NCBI GenBank assembly: GCA_947385425.1
Contig: CANDKY010000038.1
Span: forward strand, 1-32,540
Source: an uncultured Lachnospiraceae bacterium
Lineage (GTDB): Bacteria > Bacillota > Clostridia > Lachnospirales > Lachnospiraceae
Direction of reading: 5' to 3'
DNA: 32,540 nucleotides
Below the pieces are notes generated by a model. That model worked only from the letters and a program-made list of their open reading frames with translations. It ran no database searches and was not told where the DNA came from. Each line of letters starts with the position of its first letter. The stretch's first letter is position 1. Made by a program: the position numbers and the translations under genes. Of the stretch, positions 414 through 32,030 are shown one piece after another.

Positions 414-606
414 CACAATGTCATTAACTTAAGCTTCCCGTGGCGCTGCAGACCATATATCTCATCCGGACGCGCTTTCGCTCAGCGGCAGACGCAACGG
501 TACTAAGGCGCCAAAACACGGCGCCTAAGTGCCGGCGTCTTTCGATGGTCCGGATTGAGATATATGGTCTGCAACACCCCGAAAAGCTTAAGTTAATGAC
601 ATTGTG
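414..606. repeat. 193-bp fold-back (MITE-like) element
   Basis: The outer arms, 414-436 and 584-606, are a perfect 23-bp inverted repeat (CACAATGTCATTAACTTAAG and the following CTT). A second pair of arms, 448-470 and 549-572, matches except for one extra base. A third nested stem surrounds GGCGCC-AAAACAC-GGCGCC at about 490-540. The whole element could fold into one long hairpin. It contains no coding sequence. The right-arm motif CTTAAGTTAATGACATT recurs at 23251-23267. It sits between the Rpn fragment and the ffh operon. Confidence 0.8.
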
Positions 607-3373: not shown

Positions 3374-3517
3374 TACGGATGGGTATTATCTGCCCATCCG
3401 TATTTATGCACAGGGGTGCGTAAGGAAATTAGCAGCTTTGCTGCACGCACCCCGCGCGGCGAGTAGGGGGAAAAGCCTCCCCTACTCGATTGCACAGGGG
3501 TGCGTAAGGAAATTAGC
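3374..3517. repeat. Hairpin cluster with a 27-bp direct repeat between khpA and rimM
   Basis: Three inverted repeats follow one another: TACGGATGGG/CCCATCCGTA (3374-3402), GGGGTGCG/CGCACCCC (3413-3453, with an inner GCAG-CTTTG-CTGC stem), and CGAGTAGGGG/CCCCTACTCG (3460-3488). A perfect 27-bp direct repeat starting TGCACAGGGGTGCGTAAGG occurs at 3407-3433 and 3491-3517. The frame is open through to rimM, but no start signal supports translation. It may be an inserted REP-like element or a processing/attenuation site inside the operon. Confidence 0.75.
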
Positions 3518-3584
3518 TGCGTTACTGTATGTTCTGGCAGTCTGCAGTATAAAATGGTACAGTCATTATAAAAAGGGAAACAGG

Positions 3585-4092: not shown

Positions 4093-5682
4093 ATGAATTT
4101 CTATGTGATGACCCTGTTTCCGGAAATGGTGGAACAGGGAATGCGGACAGGCATTTTCAGGCGGGCCCTGGAAAAGGGGCTGCTGTCCCTGGAAGCGGTC
4201 AATATACGGGATTACACGGAAGATAAGCATAAAAAAGCGGATGACTATCCTTACGGAGGCGGCGCAGGTATGCTGATGCAGGCACAGCCTGTTTTCCGTT
4301 GCTATCAGGAGATAACAGAAAGGGCAGAAAAGAACGGCATTGCCAAAAAGGGCGGGGAAAACAGGGAAGCAGGGCTTAAATCACTCAAACCAAGGGTGGT
4401 TTATCTGACGCCCCAAGGGGAAACATTTTGCCAGAGTAAGGCAAAAGAACTTGCAAAGGAAGAAAATTTGATTTTTCTGTGCGGCCATTATGAAGGGATT
4501 GACGAAAGGGTCCTGGAGGAAATTGTAACAGACTATATTTCCATAGGGGATTATGTCCTGACCGGGGGGGAACTGGCGGCAATGGTACTGATGGATGCCG
4601 TCGCCCGGCTGGTGCCCGGTGTCCTGCACAATGATGTATCGGCGGATTTCGAGACTTTTTACAATGATTTGCTGGAATACCCCCAATATTCCCGCCCGGA
4701 AGTATGGCATGGGAAGCGGGTCCCGGAGGTTCTGCTTTGCGGTGATCACCGCAAAATCGCTGCATGGCGTCTGGAACAGTCGGAGCGGAAAACGAAAGAC
4801 AGACGGCCGGACATGTATGAAAGATACAGCCGCAGGCAGCATTATATCCAGGTTATGCAGAAAAAAGGAAAATTACGGCATATGGATATGATTGAGAGCC
4901 TCCGAAGAGGACGGGGCGAAATCGTACAGGCTGCGGAATACGGGATACTCGTGCAGGACAGGGAAGCAAAAGTTTATATGCTGGCTGTATTTGACGAGGA
5001 TGGGGAGAAGGCCCGCGAAGTAATCCGGTGGCTCCCTGAAGGGGGAAGGGGGTGGCAGTATGTACTGCATCAGGAATGCCTGCTGCCGCCTCTGGAGCAG
5101 TTTATCCTGTCTGCGGGACAGGATTTTTCCGCGGAAGGCTCCGTGATGCCGGTCTATATGGCAGTCTATACCCAAAGGAATGCCTTACCTGTCCGAAATA
5201 GTAATAACAGGCGTATCCATATCCGTTTCCGTTCTCTTGGAATGGGATTTCTGAACGAGGTTATGGGACATTATGATTTGACAGGCAGGGAATATCTGGA
5301 AGAGCGGCTGAAAAGCGGGAATATTTACGGGGCATTTATTGATGAAAATACGGACGGAAATCCGAATGGGAATATAAAAGAAAATATAAATGAAACTGTG
5401 AATAAAAATGTTGGTAATGACGGTATTGCCACTGGTAAGCTGGCCGGTTTCGCCGGTGTCCATCAGGAGGGCAGCCTGGGGATGCTGGAAGTTTATGAGG
5501 AATACCGCGGGCAGGGGATCGGCAGGGCTTTGGAAGCTTTTATGGTCAATCTGCACCTTTCTATGGGCTACACTCCTTACGGGATGGTAGCGGCGGATAA
5601 CCATGTTTCCCTGAGACTGCAAAAGAAGGCAGGGCTTTGTATTTCAAAGGAGAAAATATATTGGGTTGCAGCGGACGGTTAA
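4093..5682 (+). CDS. trmD: tRNA (guanine-N1)-methyltransferase TrmD fused to a GNAT acetyltransferase
   Basis: The protein has 529 residues, against about 240-250 for TrmD alone. Residues 1 to about 260 are TrmD: YPYGGGAGMLMQ, LCGHYEGIDERV and the trefoil-knot segment ISIGDYVLTGGELA that binds S-adenosylmethionine. TrmD makes m1G37 in tRNAs to prevent frameshifting. Residues about 260-529 form a GNAT-like region with the acetyl-CoA loop RGQGIGRAL near residue 477 and an AADNHVSLRLQKKAG end. Two insertions stand out: about 22 residues near 80-105, and an Asn/Gly-rich linker near 417-445. The conserved catalytic Asp position (SDGLLE or DNLLEYP in relatives) reads YNDLLEYP, so Asn191 occupies the usual Asp place with Asp192 next. 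The gene usually next in this cluster, rplS, is absent. Confidence 0.93.
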   Translation: MNFYVMTLFPEMVEQGMRTGIFRRALEKGLLSLEAVNIRDYTEDKHKKADDYPYGGGAGMLMQAQPVFRCYQEITERAEKNGIAKKGGENREAGLKSLKPRVVYLTPQGETFCQSKAKELAKEENLIFLCGHYEGIDERVLEEIVTDYISIGDYVLTGGELAAMVLMDAVARLVPGVLHNDVSADFETFYNDLLEYPQYSRPEVWHGKRVPEVLLCGDHRKIAAWRLEQSERKTKDRRPDMYERYSRRQHYIQVMQKKGKLRHMDMIESLRRGRGEIVQAAEYGILVQDREAKVYMLAVFDEDGEKAREVIRWLPEGGRGWQYVLHQECLLPPLEQFILSAGQDFSAEGSVMPVYMAVYTQRNALPVRNSNNRRIHIRFRSLGMGFLNEVMGHYDLTGREYLEERLKSGNIYGAFIDENTDGNPNGNIKENINETVNKNVGNDGIATGKLAGFAGVHQEGSLGMLEVYEEYRGQGIGRALEAFMVNLHLSMGYTPYGMVAADNHVSLRLQKKAGLCISKEKIYWVAADG

Positions 5683-5685
5683 GAA

Positions 5686-5713
5686 TTGACTTTTCATAGG
5701 GGGATGCTATAAT
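5686..5713 (+). promoter_or_regulatory. Strong promoter for the structured RNA upstream of degV
   Basis: TTGACT at 5686-5691 and TATAAT at 5708-5713 are separated by 16 bp. The expected start, about 5719-5721, coincides with the first base of the closing stem of the RNA structure at 5720. The promoter begins a few bases after the trmD stop codon. Confidence 0.85.
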
Positions 5714-5719
5714 ATTAGC

Positions 5720-5850
5720 GTGAAAAGAAGCTCTAAGGCGTCAAAAGACGCCGCCTAAGAGCTTCTAGGGTTTGCCATGCAGGATGCATGGGCAAACCTG
5801 TTTCACGCGGAAGAATGCCCGAAAAGAGGGCATTCTTCCAGGTTTTTTTG
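5720..5850 (+). ncRNA. Candidate small RNA or leader: three-way junction plus terminator
   Basis: The predicted transcript begins with GUGAAA (5720-5725), which pairs with UUUCAC (5801-5806). Inside this stem are two adjacent hairpins. The first, 5726-5766, has arms AGAAGCUCU and AGAGCUUCU around GUC-AAAA-GAC. The second, 5769-5798, pairs GGUUUGCC..AUGCA with UGCAUGGGCAAACC. A perfect 12-bp terminator stem, GGAAGAAUGCCC/GGGCAUUCUUCC (5809-5839), is followed by seven U. Promoter, junction and terminator form a complete unit of about 130 nt. It does not match 6S, SRP, tmRNA, RNase P or T-box features known to me. It may act alone or as an attenuator for degV, whose start is about 100 nt downstream. 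The first hairpin belongs to a small repeat family in this window. Confidence 0.65.
5809..5850 (+). terminator. Intrinsic terminator between the structured RNA and degV
   Basis: A perfect 12-bp stem (5809-5820 with 5828-5839), a GAAAAGA loop and a T-run at about 5843-5849 form a textbook Rho-independent terminator. It lies upstream of degV, so it either ends a free small RNA or attenuates degV expression. Confidence 0.85.
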
Positions 5851-5953
5851 GCGGGTTTGTGCTGCTGCGGGGCGGCAGCATGCATGTTGGTTAGATATGA
5901 AATGATGGAAGAAAGGGAGAGGTATCCGGCGGTTGCGGATACGGGAGAGTAAA

Positions 5954-22959: not shown

Positions 22960-23206
22960 GCCTGTTTTGCTTTCGGAGGAGCACGTCCTGTCTTTTTGCA
23001 GCTTATTTGAATGGGGTTTTACTAAACAGAAGATGATATGTTTTGGTACAGGCCGGGTCGGCTGTGAAGGGCATCCATGCCCGACACAGCCTAAAATGGC
23101 CATCCATGGCCATTTTCCCCTAGGTTTTCCGATCTTCTGTTAAGTAAAACCTCCATCCAAAACGATGCAAAAAGACAGGACGTGCCCCTCCGAAAGCAAA
23201 GCAGGC
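22960..23206. repeat. 247-bp branched fold-back element
   Basis: Arms of 75 bp each (22960-23034 and 23132-23206) pair with few mismatches: GCCTGTTTTGCTTTCGGAGG with CCTCCGAAAGCAAAGCAGGC, ACGTCCTGTCTTTTTGCA with TGCAAAAAGACAGGACGT, and CAGAAGAT with ATCTTCTG. The central part holds two further perfect hairpins: GGCTGTG..GGGCATCCATGCCC..CACAGCC (about 23060-23091) and AAAATGGCCATCCATGGCC.. (about 23093-23116). No protein is encoded. It may also stop transcription. Confidence 0.85.
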
Positions 23207-29274: not shown

Positions 29275-31467
29275 ATGTACAAAATAGATTGCAGACAAAG
29301 AAACAGGCCCTATCCATTGGGTGTGACAACGACAGAATTTGGCTATACTTATTTTTCCGTAGTAATAAAAAGCGGGAATGACTGCGGTATCGTTTTATAT
29401 GATAGAAGAACAGGGAAGGAAACGCGGATTCCTTTCAGCGGACAGAATAAATACGGTTCCATTTACAGCTTTGCGGTAAAGGATCTTGACATCCGGCGGT
29501 ATTCCTATAATTTTTACGAAGGGGGGCGTGTGTTCACGGATCCCTATGTAAAGGTGCTTTGCGGGCATGAAAAATGGGGGGAATGCGAAGGGCTGCTCAA
29601 AGGCGGCTTCCTGCAGCCGGATTACGACTGGCAGGGGGACAGGCCGTTAAAGACTCCCTATGAAGACAGCATACTCTATTGCCTGAATGTAAGGGGATTT
29701 ACGAAACACAAGTCTTCGAAGGTTGCCCATAAAGGGACTTTCCGCGGCCTGACGGAGAAAATACCTTATCTGAAAGAACTCGGGATCACTGCAGTGGAGC
29801 TGATGCCTGCTTATGAATTTGACGAGTTGGAAAGGGAGAAGGGAAGGCTTGTTCCCGGCGCAGCACATCCCCCGCTTACGATGGAAGAGGCGAAAAGCCG
29901 TTTTATGGAGAAACCGATGGAAACGGGAAACATGGATAGGCCGGGAATAACGGATAACCCAGGGAAAATAGAAAATACGGATAACCCAGAGAAAACGGAA
30001 AATATGGGTAAACCGGGAAAAAACGAAAATGCGGATAAACCGTGTCAAACGGAAAACCCAATAAAAACAGAAAGCACGGATAAACCGGGGAACCCAGAAG
30101 AAACGCAGGCTCCGGGCAGCCTGAAAAATCCGGAAGAGGGCGCTAAGGGCGTTAAGCCCGAAAAGAAAAGGTATAATTGCTGGGGATATACGGAAAGTTA
30201 TTACTTTGCCCCGAAAGCGGCTTTTGCGGCGGATAAGGATGCAGTGAAGGAATTTAAGGATATGGTAAAGGAGCTGCATAGAAACGGGATAGAGATCATT
30301 ATGCAGTTTTATTTCCCTAATTCGGTAAATACGGGGCTGATTTTAGATGTCCTGAAATACTGGATGCTGGAATATCATATTGATGGTTTTCATTTAAAAG
30401 GGGAGCGGATCCCTCTTCAGGTAATCGCAACGGAACCTCTTCTGACAGATACGAAACTGTTCCATTATGATTTCCCCTATGGGTTGGTTTACGGGAAAGA
30501 TGAAGTGCCTGCTTACCGTAATCTTGGAAATTATAATGATGAATACATGTATTCGGTACGGAGTTTCCTGAAAGGCGACGACGGCATGCTCGGGAAATTC
30601 CTTGATTTGCAGCGCAGGAACCCCGCGTATTGCGGAGTGGTGAATTATATAACGAATTATTACGGCTTTTCCCTGTCGGACATGGTTTCTTACGAAAAGA
30701 AGCATAATGAAGAAAACGGGGAGGGAAACCGGGACGGAAATGACAATAACATGACCTGGAACTGCGGCATTGAGGGCAATACCCGCAGGAAAAATGTGCT
30801 GGAGCTTCGCAAACAGCAGATGAAAAACGGTATTTCCATGCTATTTCTGGCGCAGGGAACCCCGTTGATTTACAGCGGGGATGAGTTTGGCAATACCCGT
30901 TACGGGAATAACAATCCTTATTGCCAGGATAATGAAACCGGATGGGTAAAGTGGAACACAGGGGCTTTCGGCAGGGAGATTTTCTCCTTTGTCAAAGAGG
31001 TGATCGCCCTGCGGAAGCGCCATCCTGTCCTCCATAACGGCAGTGAACTGAAAATATTGGATTATATCGGCTGCGGTTATCCGGATGTCTCTTATCACGG
31101 CGAGGAGGCATGGCGGGCGGATTTTGGTTATTCCAGCCGTTTTGCAGGCGTAATGTACTGCGGATGTTATGCGAAGAAGGTACAGGACGGAATGGAAGAG
31201 GATGATTTCTTCTATATCGCATATAATATGCATTGGCTGCGCCATTCTTTTGCCCTTCCGCAGCTGCCCAGGGGGATGAAATGGTGCCTGCTTACGGATA
31301 CCGGGAAGATGGAAGGGTTCGCGGAAGAAACAGACTTTGCGGATGAACAGGAAATGCCCCAGCAGGCGCGGGTGGAACCAAGGACGATACAGATCTATAT
31401 TTCCAAAAAAATAAAAACGCCAAAAGAGGCTTTAAAGCGGCAAAAGACGCCGTCTAAGAGTTTCTAG
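29275..31467 (+). CDS. GH13 debranching-enzyme homologue with degenerate catalytic motifs
   Basis: The 730-residue protein is laid out like a glycogen debranching enzyme or isoamylase: an N-terminal CBM48-like part, a GH13 barrel (YNCWGYTESYYFAPKAAFAADKD; LRKQQMKNGISMLFLAQGTPLIYSGDE) and a C-terminal beta domain. All four catalytic regions are changed. Region I DxxxNH reads QFYFPN. Region II, with the nucleophile Asp (DGFRFD), reads DGFHLK (370-375). Region III keeps only a TEP. Region IV HD reads YY in NYITNYYGF (457-465). A Lys/Asn/Pro/Thr-rich low-complexity insert spans about 200-297. GGAGGAG precedes ATG 29275. The last 19 or so residues come from a REP-like hairpin. It is most likely a non-catalytic glycan-binding or regulatory paralogue. 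Confidence 0.85.
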   Translation: MYKIDCRQRNRPYPLGVTTTEFGYTYFSVVIKSGNDCGIVLYDRRTGKETRIPFSGQNKYGSIYSFAVKDLDIRRYSYNFYEGGRVFTDPYVKVLCGHEKWGECEGLLKGGFLQPDYDWQGDRPLKTPYEDSILYCLNVRGFTKHKSSKVAHKGTFRGLTEKIPYLKELGITAVELMPAYEFDELEREKGRLVPGAAHPPLTMEEAKSRFMEKPMETGNMDRPGITDNPGKIENTDNPEKTENMGKPGKNENADKPCQTENPIKTESTDKPGNPEETQAPGSLKNPEEGAKGVKPEKKRYNCWGYTESYYFAPKAAFAADKDAVKEFKDMVKELHRNGIEIIMQFYFPNSVNTGLILDVLKYWMLEYHIDGFHLKGERIPLQVIATEPLLTDTKLFHYDFPYGLVYGKDEVPAYRNLGNYNDEYMYSVRSFLKGDDGMLGKFLDLQRRNPAYCGVVNYITNYYGFSLSDMVSYEKKHNEENGEGNRDGNDNNMTWNCGIEGNTRRKNVLELRKQQMKNGISMLFLAQGTPLIYSGDEFGNTRYGNNNPYCQDNETGWVKWNTGAFGREIFSFVKEVIALRKRHPVLHNGSELKILDYIGCGYPDVSYHGEEAWRADFGYSSRFAGVMYCGCYAKKVQDGMEEDDFFYIAYNMHWLRHSFALPQLPRGMKWCLLTDTGKMEGFAEETDFADEQEMPQQARVEPRTIQIYISKKIKTPKEALKRQKTPSKSF
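31433..31467. repeat. REP-like hairpin at the 3' end of the GH13-like gene
   Basis: CTTTAAAGCGGCAAAAGACGCCGTCTAAGAG and TTTCTAG resemble CTCTAAGGCGTCAAAAGACGCCGCCTAAGAGCTTCTAG at 5731-5768. The gene stop codon TAG is the end of the repeat. A third related hairpin is at 503-529. Confidence 0.7.
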
Positions 31468-31502
31468 TTCGGATACCCGCGAAAGCGGGCGATGGGGGTA
31501 AT

Positions 31503-32030
31503 ATGAAAATATGGGAACATTTTAAAACAGTTACGTACCACCGTTATCTCGTGATGAAGGGATGTTTTAAGGTGGGGCTTTATTATCAGGGATTGACCCA
31601 TGATCTGTCAAAGTACAGCCCTTCGGAATTCCTGGTGGGAGCGAAATATTATCAGGGAAACAGGAGCCCGAATAATGCAGAGCGGGAAGCCATCGGTTAT
31701 TCCAGTGCCTGGCTGCACCACAAGGGACGCAATAAGCATCATTATGAATACTGGATTGATTACAGCACAAAGAATATACCGGGCGGCATGGCCCCGGCGC
31801 CGATGCCGAAGCGCTATGTGGTGGAAATGCTTATGGACCGCATAGCTGCCTGCAAAGTATATAAGAAAGAGGATTATACCGACCGATCGCCGCTGGAATA
31901 TTATCTGTCGGGTAAAGATCCCGCCCCATTGCATAAGAAAACGAAGGCACTGCTGGAAAAACTGCTCTATATGCTGGCTGATCAGGGGGAAGAGAAGACT
32001 TTTGCCTATATCCGGCGTAAAATTTTATAG
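31503..32030 (+). CDS. DUF5662 family protein
   Basis: The 175-residue protein matches the DUF5662 type: an early THDLSKYSPSEF stretch (32-43, with His33 and Asp34), AWLHHKGRNKHHYEYW (69-84), and VEMLMDRIAACKVY. Clustered His and Asp suggest metal binding, and HD-like chemistry is possible but not shown. GGGGGTAAT precedes the ATG. It follows the GH13-like gene by 35 bp. Confidence 0.85.
   Translation: MKIWEHFKTVTYHRYLVMKGCFKVGLYYQGLTHDLSKYSPSEFLVGAKYYQGNRSPNNAEREAIGYSSAWLHHKGRNKHHYEYWIDYSTKNIPGGMAPAPMPKRYVVEMLMDRIAACKVYKKEDYTDRSPLEYYLSGKDPAPLHKKTKALLEKLLYMLADQGEEKTFAYIRRKIL

What the first reader, a model, noticed from the sequence alone, without database searches (positions are those of the whole stretch)
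5686..5850. Self-contained structured RNA between trmD and degV
A near-consensus promoter (TTGACT-16-TATAAT) predicts a start at the exact base where a GUGAAA/UUUCAC closing stem begins. That stem holds two coaxial-looking hairpins with almost no unpaired bases, and a perfect 12-bp terminator follows at once. Promoter, three-way junction and terminator make a tidy transcription unit of about 130 nt that no RNA class known to me matches. It could be a free small RNA or an attenuator/riboswitch for the fatty-acid-binding protein DegV.
Basis: partly seen in the sequence, partly recalled or inferred. Interest (0 to 1): 0.75.

Follow-up and report, generated by a model that had tools for sequence, protein, structure and literature searches.

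The report
Repeated stop-codon stem element of Lachnospiraceae
The structured stretch between trmD and degV is one of more than a hundred copies of an uncatalogued, tightly folded repeat that mostly sits exactly at the stop codons of genes in bacteria of the family Lachnospiraceae; here a copy landed at the start point of degV's own promoter, which made it look like a small RNA gene.

Summary
In detail: a near-consensus promoter (5686-5713), a closed two-arm fold (5718-5808) and a terminator-like hairpin (5809-5849) are present, and the fold is far beyond chance. The reading as a self-contained sRNA or degV riboswitch is not supported. The fold is one copy of a dispersed repeat (109 pattern hits against 2 in the control; 126 model hits) that is not in Rfam 15. 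Four relatives have degV's promoter box without the repeat, so the repeat inserted at its predicted start point. Elsewhere in this genome the repeat abuts the end of a sense gene: 70 of 81 leading copies lie within -5 to +39 nt of a stop codon, and 35 of those genes read into it. Related elements occur in 8 other genera of 119 sampled genomes, with about 30 closing-stem sequences that stay 99% paired. At one orthologous gene the closing stem contains the gene's own stop codon, and the opposite strand changes with it in place. I read it as a REP-like mobile element of a new variant, possibly kept as an RNA structure tied to translation termination. What moves it is unknown: no REP-associated transposase was found.

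The parts
5686..5713 (+). Ancestral degV promoter (TTGACT-16-TATAAT), not part of the repeat
   Evidence: the same promoter upstream of degV in G009, and TTGACT with weaker -10 boxes in G002, G012 and G015
5715..5717 (+). Left junction TTA; the A at -3 is invariant in 81 of 81 leading copies
5718..5725 (+). Closing stem, left strand GCGTGAAA
5726..5766 (+). Arm 1 hairpin (CTAAGGC...GCCTAAG type motif shared across genera)
5768..5798 (+). Arm 2 hairpin (reduced to a short linker in most copies from other genera)
5801..5808 (+). Closing stem, right strand TTTCACGC
5809..5849 (+). GGAAGAAYG hairpin followed by AGG and T7; terminator-like in this copy
5860..5880 (+). Right-end hairpin of the repeat unit
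5889..5893 (+). Right end of the unit (GGTTA); tandem units often join as GGTTA|GCGTGAAA
5954..6814 (+). degV (DegV family), now downstream of the inserted repeat; GTG start chosen by comparison with relatives
   Evidence: Pfam PF02645, E 2.5e-65
4093..5682 (+). trmD with an extra C-terminal region (GNAT-like by my reading; Pfam matched only the TrmD part); its stop is 37 nt before the element
   Evidence: Pfam PF01746

Best explanation
The feature is one copy of a dispersed, mobile-like repeat (unit about 5718-5893) that inserted after a TTA at the start point of degV's ancestral promoter. Shown: many copies, empty sites in relatives, sense orientation at gene ends, stop codons in the element's first bases, and covariation of both arms and the closing stem. 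Inferred: it spreads as a folded single strand through a recombinase not yet identified, in the manner of REP/RAYT or IS200/IS605-derived elements; copies survive mainly at gene ends, where the built-in stop codons make insertion nearly harmless. In this copy T7 follows the last hairpin, so transcription from the degV promoter should start near 5720 and end near 5849, reducing degV expression.
For: Multi-copy: 65 BLAST matches in the own genome, partial ones included, 109 pattern hits against 2 in the control, 126 model hits. Empty sites: at 4 sites on C2 the model finds no element at the same gene end in 13 of 13, 14 of 15, 13 of 13 and 12 of 13 syntenic relatives; the two exceptions are a partial arm-1 match in G003 and a tandem pair of its own kind in G012. 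Gene ends: 70 of 81 leading copies have a sense ORF of at least 90 codons whose stop lies at -5 to +39 of GTGAAA. At 8 of 9 sites with homologues, these end from 4 codons before to about 15 codons after the same point, and within two codons at four sites. Junction: A at -3 in 81 of 81; tandem units join through the same TTA in many cases. degV promoter box present without the repeat in G009, G002, G012 and G015. Covariation on 59 copies: 17 of 48 pairs with double changes, 169 cells against 48.8 +/- 8.1 shuffled, 0 of 500. G-U is rare (15 of 2724 paired cells), which fits a DNA hairpin at least as well as an RNA.
Against: No REP-associated transposase was found. Of the own genome's two Y1 matches, one was typed and is IS200; G012 has 71 model hits and no Y1_Tnp match; 29 of 43 Y1_Tnp places were searched and gave one weak match (E 0.08). 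Intact right ends are few (21). The ninth homologue site (C2:95260) lost about 18 or more native codons. Rarity of insertions past the stop is not explained by target supply: 133 TTA[AG] sites lie 1-67 nt after 405 long ORFs against 73 at the stop, yet only 9 of 79 insertions are more than 5 nt past a stop. In the same covariation test the number of pair types is not above shuffles (34 against 37.0, 499 of 500 at least as high). In situ compensatory change at one gene points to selection in place, beyond mere mobility.
Confidence: 0.6

Rival explanations
1. A cis-acting RNA structure with a host function: its closing helix contains or abuts the stop codon, so it folds only when no ribosome is terminating and could set mRNA stability or coupling to the next gene.
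For: At the Beta-CASP/RMMBL gene the closing stem holds the last codons and the stop. In 7 orthologues 3 closing pairs and 6 arm pairs changed on both sides, 19 cells against 5.8 +/- 2.1 shuffled, 0 of 500; UAA or UGA in the stop is matched by U or C opposite. The alignment across genera has about 30 closing-stem sequences, 99.1% paired. It sits between rpoA and what I read as rplQ in G061 without a T-tract, so it is not simply a terminator there.
Against: Presence is patchy: 8 of 80 orthologues of that gene carry it. Hits per genome run from 0 to 126 in the genus. It occurs on unrelated genes. In the 7-row test the number of further pair types is not clearly above shuffles (14 against 11.8, 60 of 500). 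In situ compensation could also arise by templated repair of a hairpin.
Confidence: 0.27
2. A portable intrinsic terminator spread and kept for ending transcription behind genes.
For: The last hairpin is followed by a run of at least 4 T within 11 nt in 48 of 74 copies of this genome; this copy has T7.
Against: 26 of 74 copies lack that run; copies read in other genera mostly lack a T-tract; a copy lies between rpoA and an rplQ-like frame in G061; the three-way fold is not needed for termination.
Confidence: 0.08
3. A free small RNA or degV riboswitch.
For: Promoter spacing puts the predicted start at the first base of the fold. Two other copies away from gene ends (C4:70930, C92:9404) also follow a TATAAT by 6 and 4 nt.
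Against: The promoter belongs to degV in relatives that lack the repeat. Only 4 of 81 leading copies have TATAAT within 20 nt, one of them being part of a coding end; 19 of 2927 TTA[AG] sites in the own loci do, the copies themselves included.
Confidence: 0.05

Closest known systems
GTAG-tagged REP elements and REPINs (RAYT-associated)
   Same: Many short folded repeats, mostly near gene 3' ends; GTAG REPs often supply the TAG stop codon of flanking ORFs (PMC3733652, section 15 read). Here the junction is TTAG in 29 and GTAG in 12 of 81 leading copies.
   Different: Those REPs are 20-40 bp palindromes (passage read); this unit is about 170 bp with a closed two-arm fold and two more hairpins, and points with the upstream gene. 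No RAYT was found.
Palindrome-associated transposable elements (PATEs) and other IS200/IS605-derived non-autonomous elements
   Same: Short sequence at the left junction repeated at the right end; hairpins near both ends; head-to-tail tandems.
   Different: No IS200/IS605 element with these ends was found. What defines a PATE is recalled; only a search listing was seen.
Mycobacterial interspersed repetitive units (MIRUs)
   Same: Mobile repeats that insert at gene boundaries so that reading frames are little disturbed (one passage of PMC12548453 read).
   Different: MIRUs insert at start codons and carry a coupled ORF (same passage); this element sits mostly at stops. I did not test it for a conserved ORF.
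Integron attC sites
   Same: Structure-conserved sites at gene ends, stop codon at or inside the folded site (recalled).
   Different: Sites here are scattered over many contigs; the closing stem does not keep a fixed core sequence.

Membership tests
REP/REPIN (RAYT-mobilised) | High-copy folded repeat, mainly at gene 3' ends | tested here: met
REP/REPIN (RAYT-mobilised) | 5' GTAG tetranucleotide next to the palindrome | tested here: inconclusive
   TTAG 29, GTAG 12, TGAG 8, TTAA 6 and others among 81 leading copies
REP/REPIN (RAYT-mobilised) | A RAYT gene in the genome flanked by the repeat | tested here: not met
   Two Y1 matches in the own genome, one typed as IS200; none in G012; one weak match at 29 of 43 Y1 places. 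Draft assemblies may lack such a gene.
REP/REPIN (RAYT-mobilised) | Small size, 20-40 bp | tested here: not met
   Unit is about 170 bp
IS200/IS605-derived non-autonomous element | An autonomous element with the same ends | tested here: inconclusive
   Right-end search gave 21 hits, which I did not trace one by one to a unit; no convincing element at the Y1 loci searched
Rfam families | Score above a gathering threshold | tested here: not met
   for the window, for 15 loci of relatives (only a Clostridiales-1 match elsewhere in L312)
Intrinsic terminator | GC-rich hairpin followed at once by a T-tract in most members | tested here: inconclusive
   48 of 74 own copies have a run of at least 4 T within 11 nt, mostly set off from the stem by AGG; mostly absent in the copies read from other genera
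Riboswitch or sRNA | Conserved position relative to a promoter and one gene | tested here: not met
   Genes and flanks differ from copy to copy
Riboswitch or sRNA | Transcribed as a discrete RNA, or ligand-responsive | not testable with these tools
   no expression data on hand

The most novel reading that the evidence does not exclude
Lachnospiraceae carry an undescribed family of RNA structures whose closing helix is, in old copies, built from the last codons and the stop codon of the upstream gene, with the opposite strand following that gene's changes. The structure can form only when no ribosome is terminating, which would couple translation termination to the fate of the mRNA 3' region. 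The family can also become mobile and multiply to over a hundred copies in a genome, taking its own stop codons along.
Probability: 0.3. Interest if true: 0.85.

Novelty: new variant of a known kind. Interest (0 to 1): 0.62.

Why it matters
A common, strongly structured gene-end element of a large bacterial family is missing from Rfam. In one genome it abuts the ends of 70 located sense ORFs, 35 of which read into it, so it changes C-termini, gene annotation and probably 3' mRNA behaviour. The in situ covariation with the stop codon makes a direct test possible of whether bacteria use structures that include the stop codon. For the window it shows how a promoter meeting an inserted repeat can mimic an sRNA gene.

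Tried and rejected
Rfam at gathering and relaxed thresholds: no family at its threshold. Phage and plasmid collections and an exact-pattern scan of genome contigs: nothing (the tools warn that the window's own genome may be left out there). Integron attC: considered because of gene-end position and structure; rejected because sites are dispersed and the closing-stem sequence varies. RAYT or IS200 as a resident mobiliser: not found. Promoter as part of the repeat: rejected by flank comparison. A tRNA control for the G-U fraction failed because no tRNA was found in the loci used, so the usual G-U share of RNA helices is recalled, not measured. Enrichment of copies behind TATAAT is modest. Not done: a search for TnpB, IscB or other recombinases; a tree-aware covariation test. 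Papers: listings seen; passages of PMC3733652, PMC12548453 and PMC8266576 read, and section 15 of PMC3733652 whole; one search found no paper. I saw no report of this element in these searches, which cover open-access papers only.

Full report
What is there. The window holds TTGACT-16-TATAAT at 5686-5713, a fold closed by GCGTGAAA/TTTCACGC (5718-5725 with 5801-5808) that carries two hairpin arms, and a 12-bp hairpin followed by AGG and T7 (5809-5849). The fold is 8.5 standard deviations below shuffled sequence. No Rfam family reaches its threshold.

It is a repeat. BLAST of the 130-base stretch against the own genome gave 65 matches, partial ones included. A 21-base pattern gave 109 hits against 2 for the reversed control, and a covariance model gave 126, with 150 candidates scored. 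I located 96 copies in the fetched stretches: 81 leading ones and 15 that follow another copy in tandem. Upstream flanks of the other copies are mostly unrelated, so the promoter is not part of the unit.

The promoter belongs to degV. In G009 degV lies elsewhere, downstream of what I read as recG, and has TTGACT-16-TATAAT in the same place; G002, G012 and G015 have TTGACT there with weaker -10 boxes. The model finds no element in these four degV loci. In G009 and G011 a ribosomal L19-like gene, by my reading, follows trmD and its extra region; the other three stretches read did not reach that far. So in this genome degV came to lie behind trmD, and the repeat landed at the predicted start point of the degV promoter. 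The T7 after the last hairpin and the lack of a further promoter-like site on this strand before 6417 predict reduced degV expression; this is inference.

Gene ends. In 70 of 81 leading copies a sense ORF of at least 90 codons ends between -5 and +39 of GTGAAA: 23 at -1 (TA|G or TA|A), 25 at +4 (the TGA of GTGA), 7 at -2, 7 at +17, and 8 at other offsets. 35 of the 70 read into the element. One more ORF (C157) runs to +49. The other ten are the window copy and two more behind a TATAAT (C4:70930, C92:9404), two behind a copy of a second small repeat (C6, C97), and five whose ORF stops 8 to 164 nt upstream. One gene-end copy (C3:74470) also has TATAAT letters, as part of its coding end.

Homologues were compared at 9 sites. 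At four (C2:109247, C3:74470, C9:9845, C9:24818) they end within two codons of the own stop. At four more they end from 4 codons before to about 15 after. At C2:95260 they run on about 18 or more codons past the junction. At the four C2 sites the model finds no element at the same gene end in 13 of 13, 14 of 15, 13 of 13 and 12 of 13 relatives. The exceptions are a partial arm-1 match in G003 and a tandem pair in G012; by eye G014 also shows a right-end-like hairpin at the third site. Target supply alone does not explain the placement: around 405 long ORFs of relatives, TTA[AG] sites number 73 at the stop and 133 in the next 67 nt, but only 9 of 79 insertions with a located ORF are more than 5 nt past the stop.

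Other genomes. Model hits at E 0.01 in 16 genomes of the genus, at most 150 candidates scored in each: own 126, G012 71, G004 39, G015 27, G013 23, G003 13, G014 9, G009 8, G001 4, G002 4, G008 2, G011 1, and none in G005, G006, G007 and G010. Of 41 copies read in G012, G013, G004 and G015, 21 have a stop within -5 to +4: G013 6 of 6, G015 1 of 1, G004 10 of 14, G012 4 of 20. By eye, 9 of the 16 misses in G012 have a flank like the right end of another unit. In a draw of 120 genomes of the family, 8 others besides the own genome have hits at E 1e-5, each a different genus. The best locus of each has a stop within -7 to +39, 8 of 8. Of 21 further elements from five of these genera, 11 are within -7 to +17; 8 of the 10 misses are in G081, whose copies are much alike and partly lie on short contigs.

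Covariation. On 59 own copies 96.7% of 2818 cells pair, and 17 of 48 pairs show double changes (169 cells, shuffled 48.8 +/- 8.1, 0 of 500). Sliding the partner drops pairing to 29-46%. The number of further pair types is not raised (34 against 37.0). The two bases before GTGAAA vary together with the two after TTTCAC. On a set of 61 rows across genera, fitted to the model and so leaning towards it, 41 of 48 pairs show double changes (469 cells against 121.3 +/- 8.8, 0 of 500), and the closing stem is 99.1% paired over about 30 sequences. These controls do not remove relatedness of the copies.

In situ change at one gene. A Beta-CASP/RMMBL protein ends in the element in G061 and G099. Of 80 orthologues fetched, 8 carry it at the gene end. 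In seven rows (six of these eight plus G099), aligned without reference to structure, the left strand of the closing stem is the last codons and the stop, for example GGACATAA, and the right strand follows it: GGACATGA/TCATGTCC, GATCATGA/TCATGATC, GACCATGA/TCATGGTC, GAACATAA/TTATGTTC. Nine of 24 pairs show double changes (19 cells against 5.8 +/- 2.1, 0 of 500); pair types are not clearly raised (14 against 11.8, 60 of 500), and L320 has one mismatch in the closing stem. The 3' flank GGTTTAC is shared by all seven rows and GGTTTACATAA by six (L323 differs), so these look like one inherited insertion. L344 keeps the closing stem and second hairpin but lacks arm 1, and L325 and L315 look like deletions. 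In G061 the stem at the end of rpoA likewise uses GAG TAA AA, and a frame that I read as rplQ follows.

Mechanism. Shown: repeat, empty sites, gene-end sense placement, built-in stops, structure backed by covariation. Inferred: mobility as a folded single strand, selection or targeting that favours gene ends, and a cis role at the stop codon in old copies. G-U pairs are rare (15 of 2724 paired cells in own copies), which fits a DNA hairpin or templated hairpin repair as well as RNA selection, so I keep both readings open. The mobiliser is unknown: of the two own Y1 matches one was typed, as IS200; G012 has none; 29 of 43 Y1 places gave one weak match.

Known relatives. GTAG REPs are the nearest described kind that I found; they too lie close to ORF 3' ends and often give the TAG stop (PMC3733652, section 15). 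Size and architecture differ and no RAYT was found, so I file this as a new variant that works like a REP and do not call it a member.

Noticed in passing
window 3403-3521: A second dispersed repeat just upstream of the rimM-like ORF, with more than 20 matches of about 78-98% identity in G009 and G015 together.
   Followed up: no
window 448-572: A longer inverted repeat (arms 448-471 and 548-572) that holds the same CTAAGGC..GCCTAAG type arm (model hit 498-534, E 9.6e-5; arms): perhaps a further version of the element.
   Followed up: no
window 31422-31522: Weak partial model hit (25 bits), with a CCCGC..GCGGG hairpin like that of the second small repeat.
   Followed up: no
window 5922-5942: A hairpin in the degV leader just before the likely ribosome-binding site, present with different sequences in G009, G002, G012 and G015; looks covarying.
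   Followed up: partly
own genome, directly upstream of C6:13754 and downstream of the C113:2953 copy: A second small repeat, GTGAAATC-hairpin-CATCCTGATTTGAGTGCCCGC-hairpin-GTTAGC, with the same ends as the main element, next to several copies.
   Followed up: partly
L084:4836-5035: Another repeat with dozens of matches in G009 and G005.
   Followed up: no
C4:70930 and C92:9404 (L038, L098): Two more copies directly behind a TATAAT, with the nearest upstream ORF on the opposite strand, like the window copy in lying behind a -10 box.
   Followed up: partly
window 23000-23167, minus strand: Rfam TwoAYGGAY RNA (88.5 bits).
   Followed up: no
copies at C122:3271, C6:22234, C62:17013, C80:9889; C10:27138, C139:7948, C92:9404: Extra hairpin modules in arm 1 (AACGGTG..ACCGTT) or in the last hairpin (GCAAAGCGAAGTATCGCTT) of single copies, as if the element grows by modules.
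   Followed up: no
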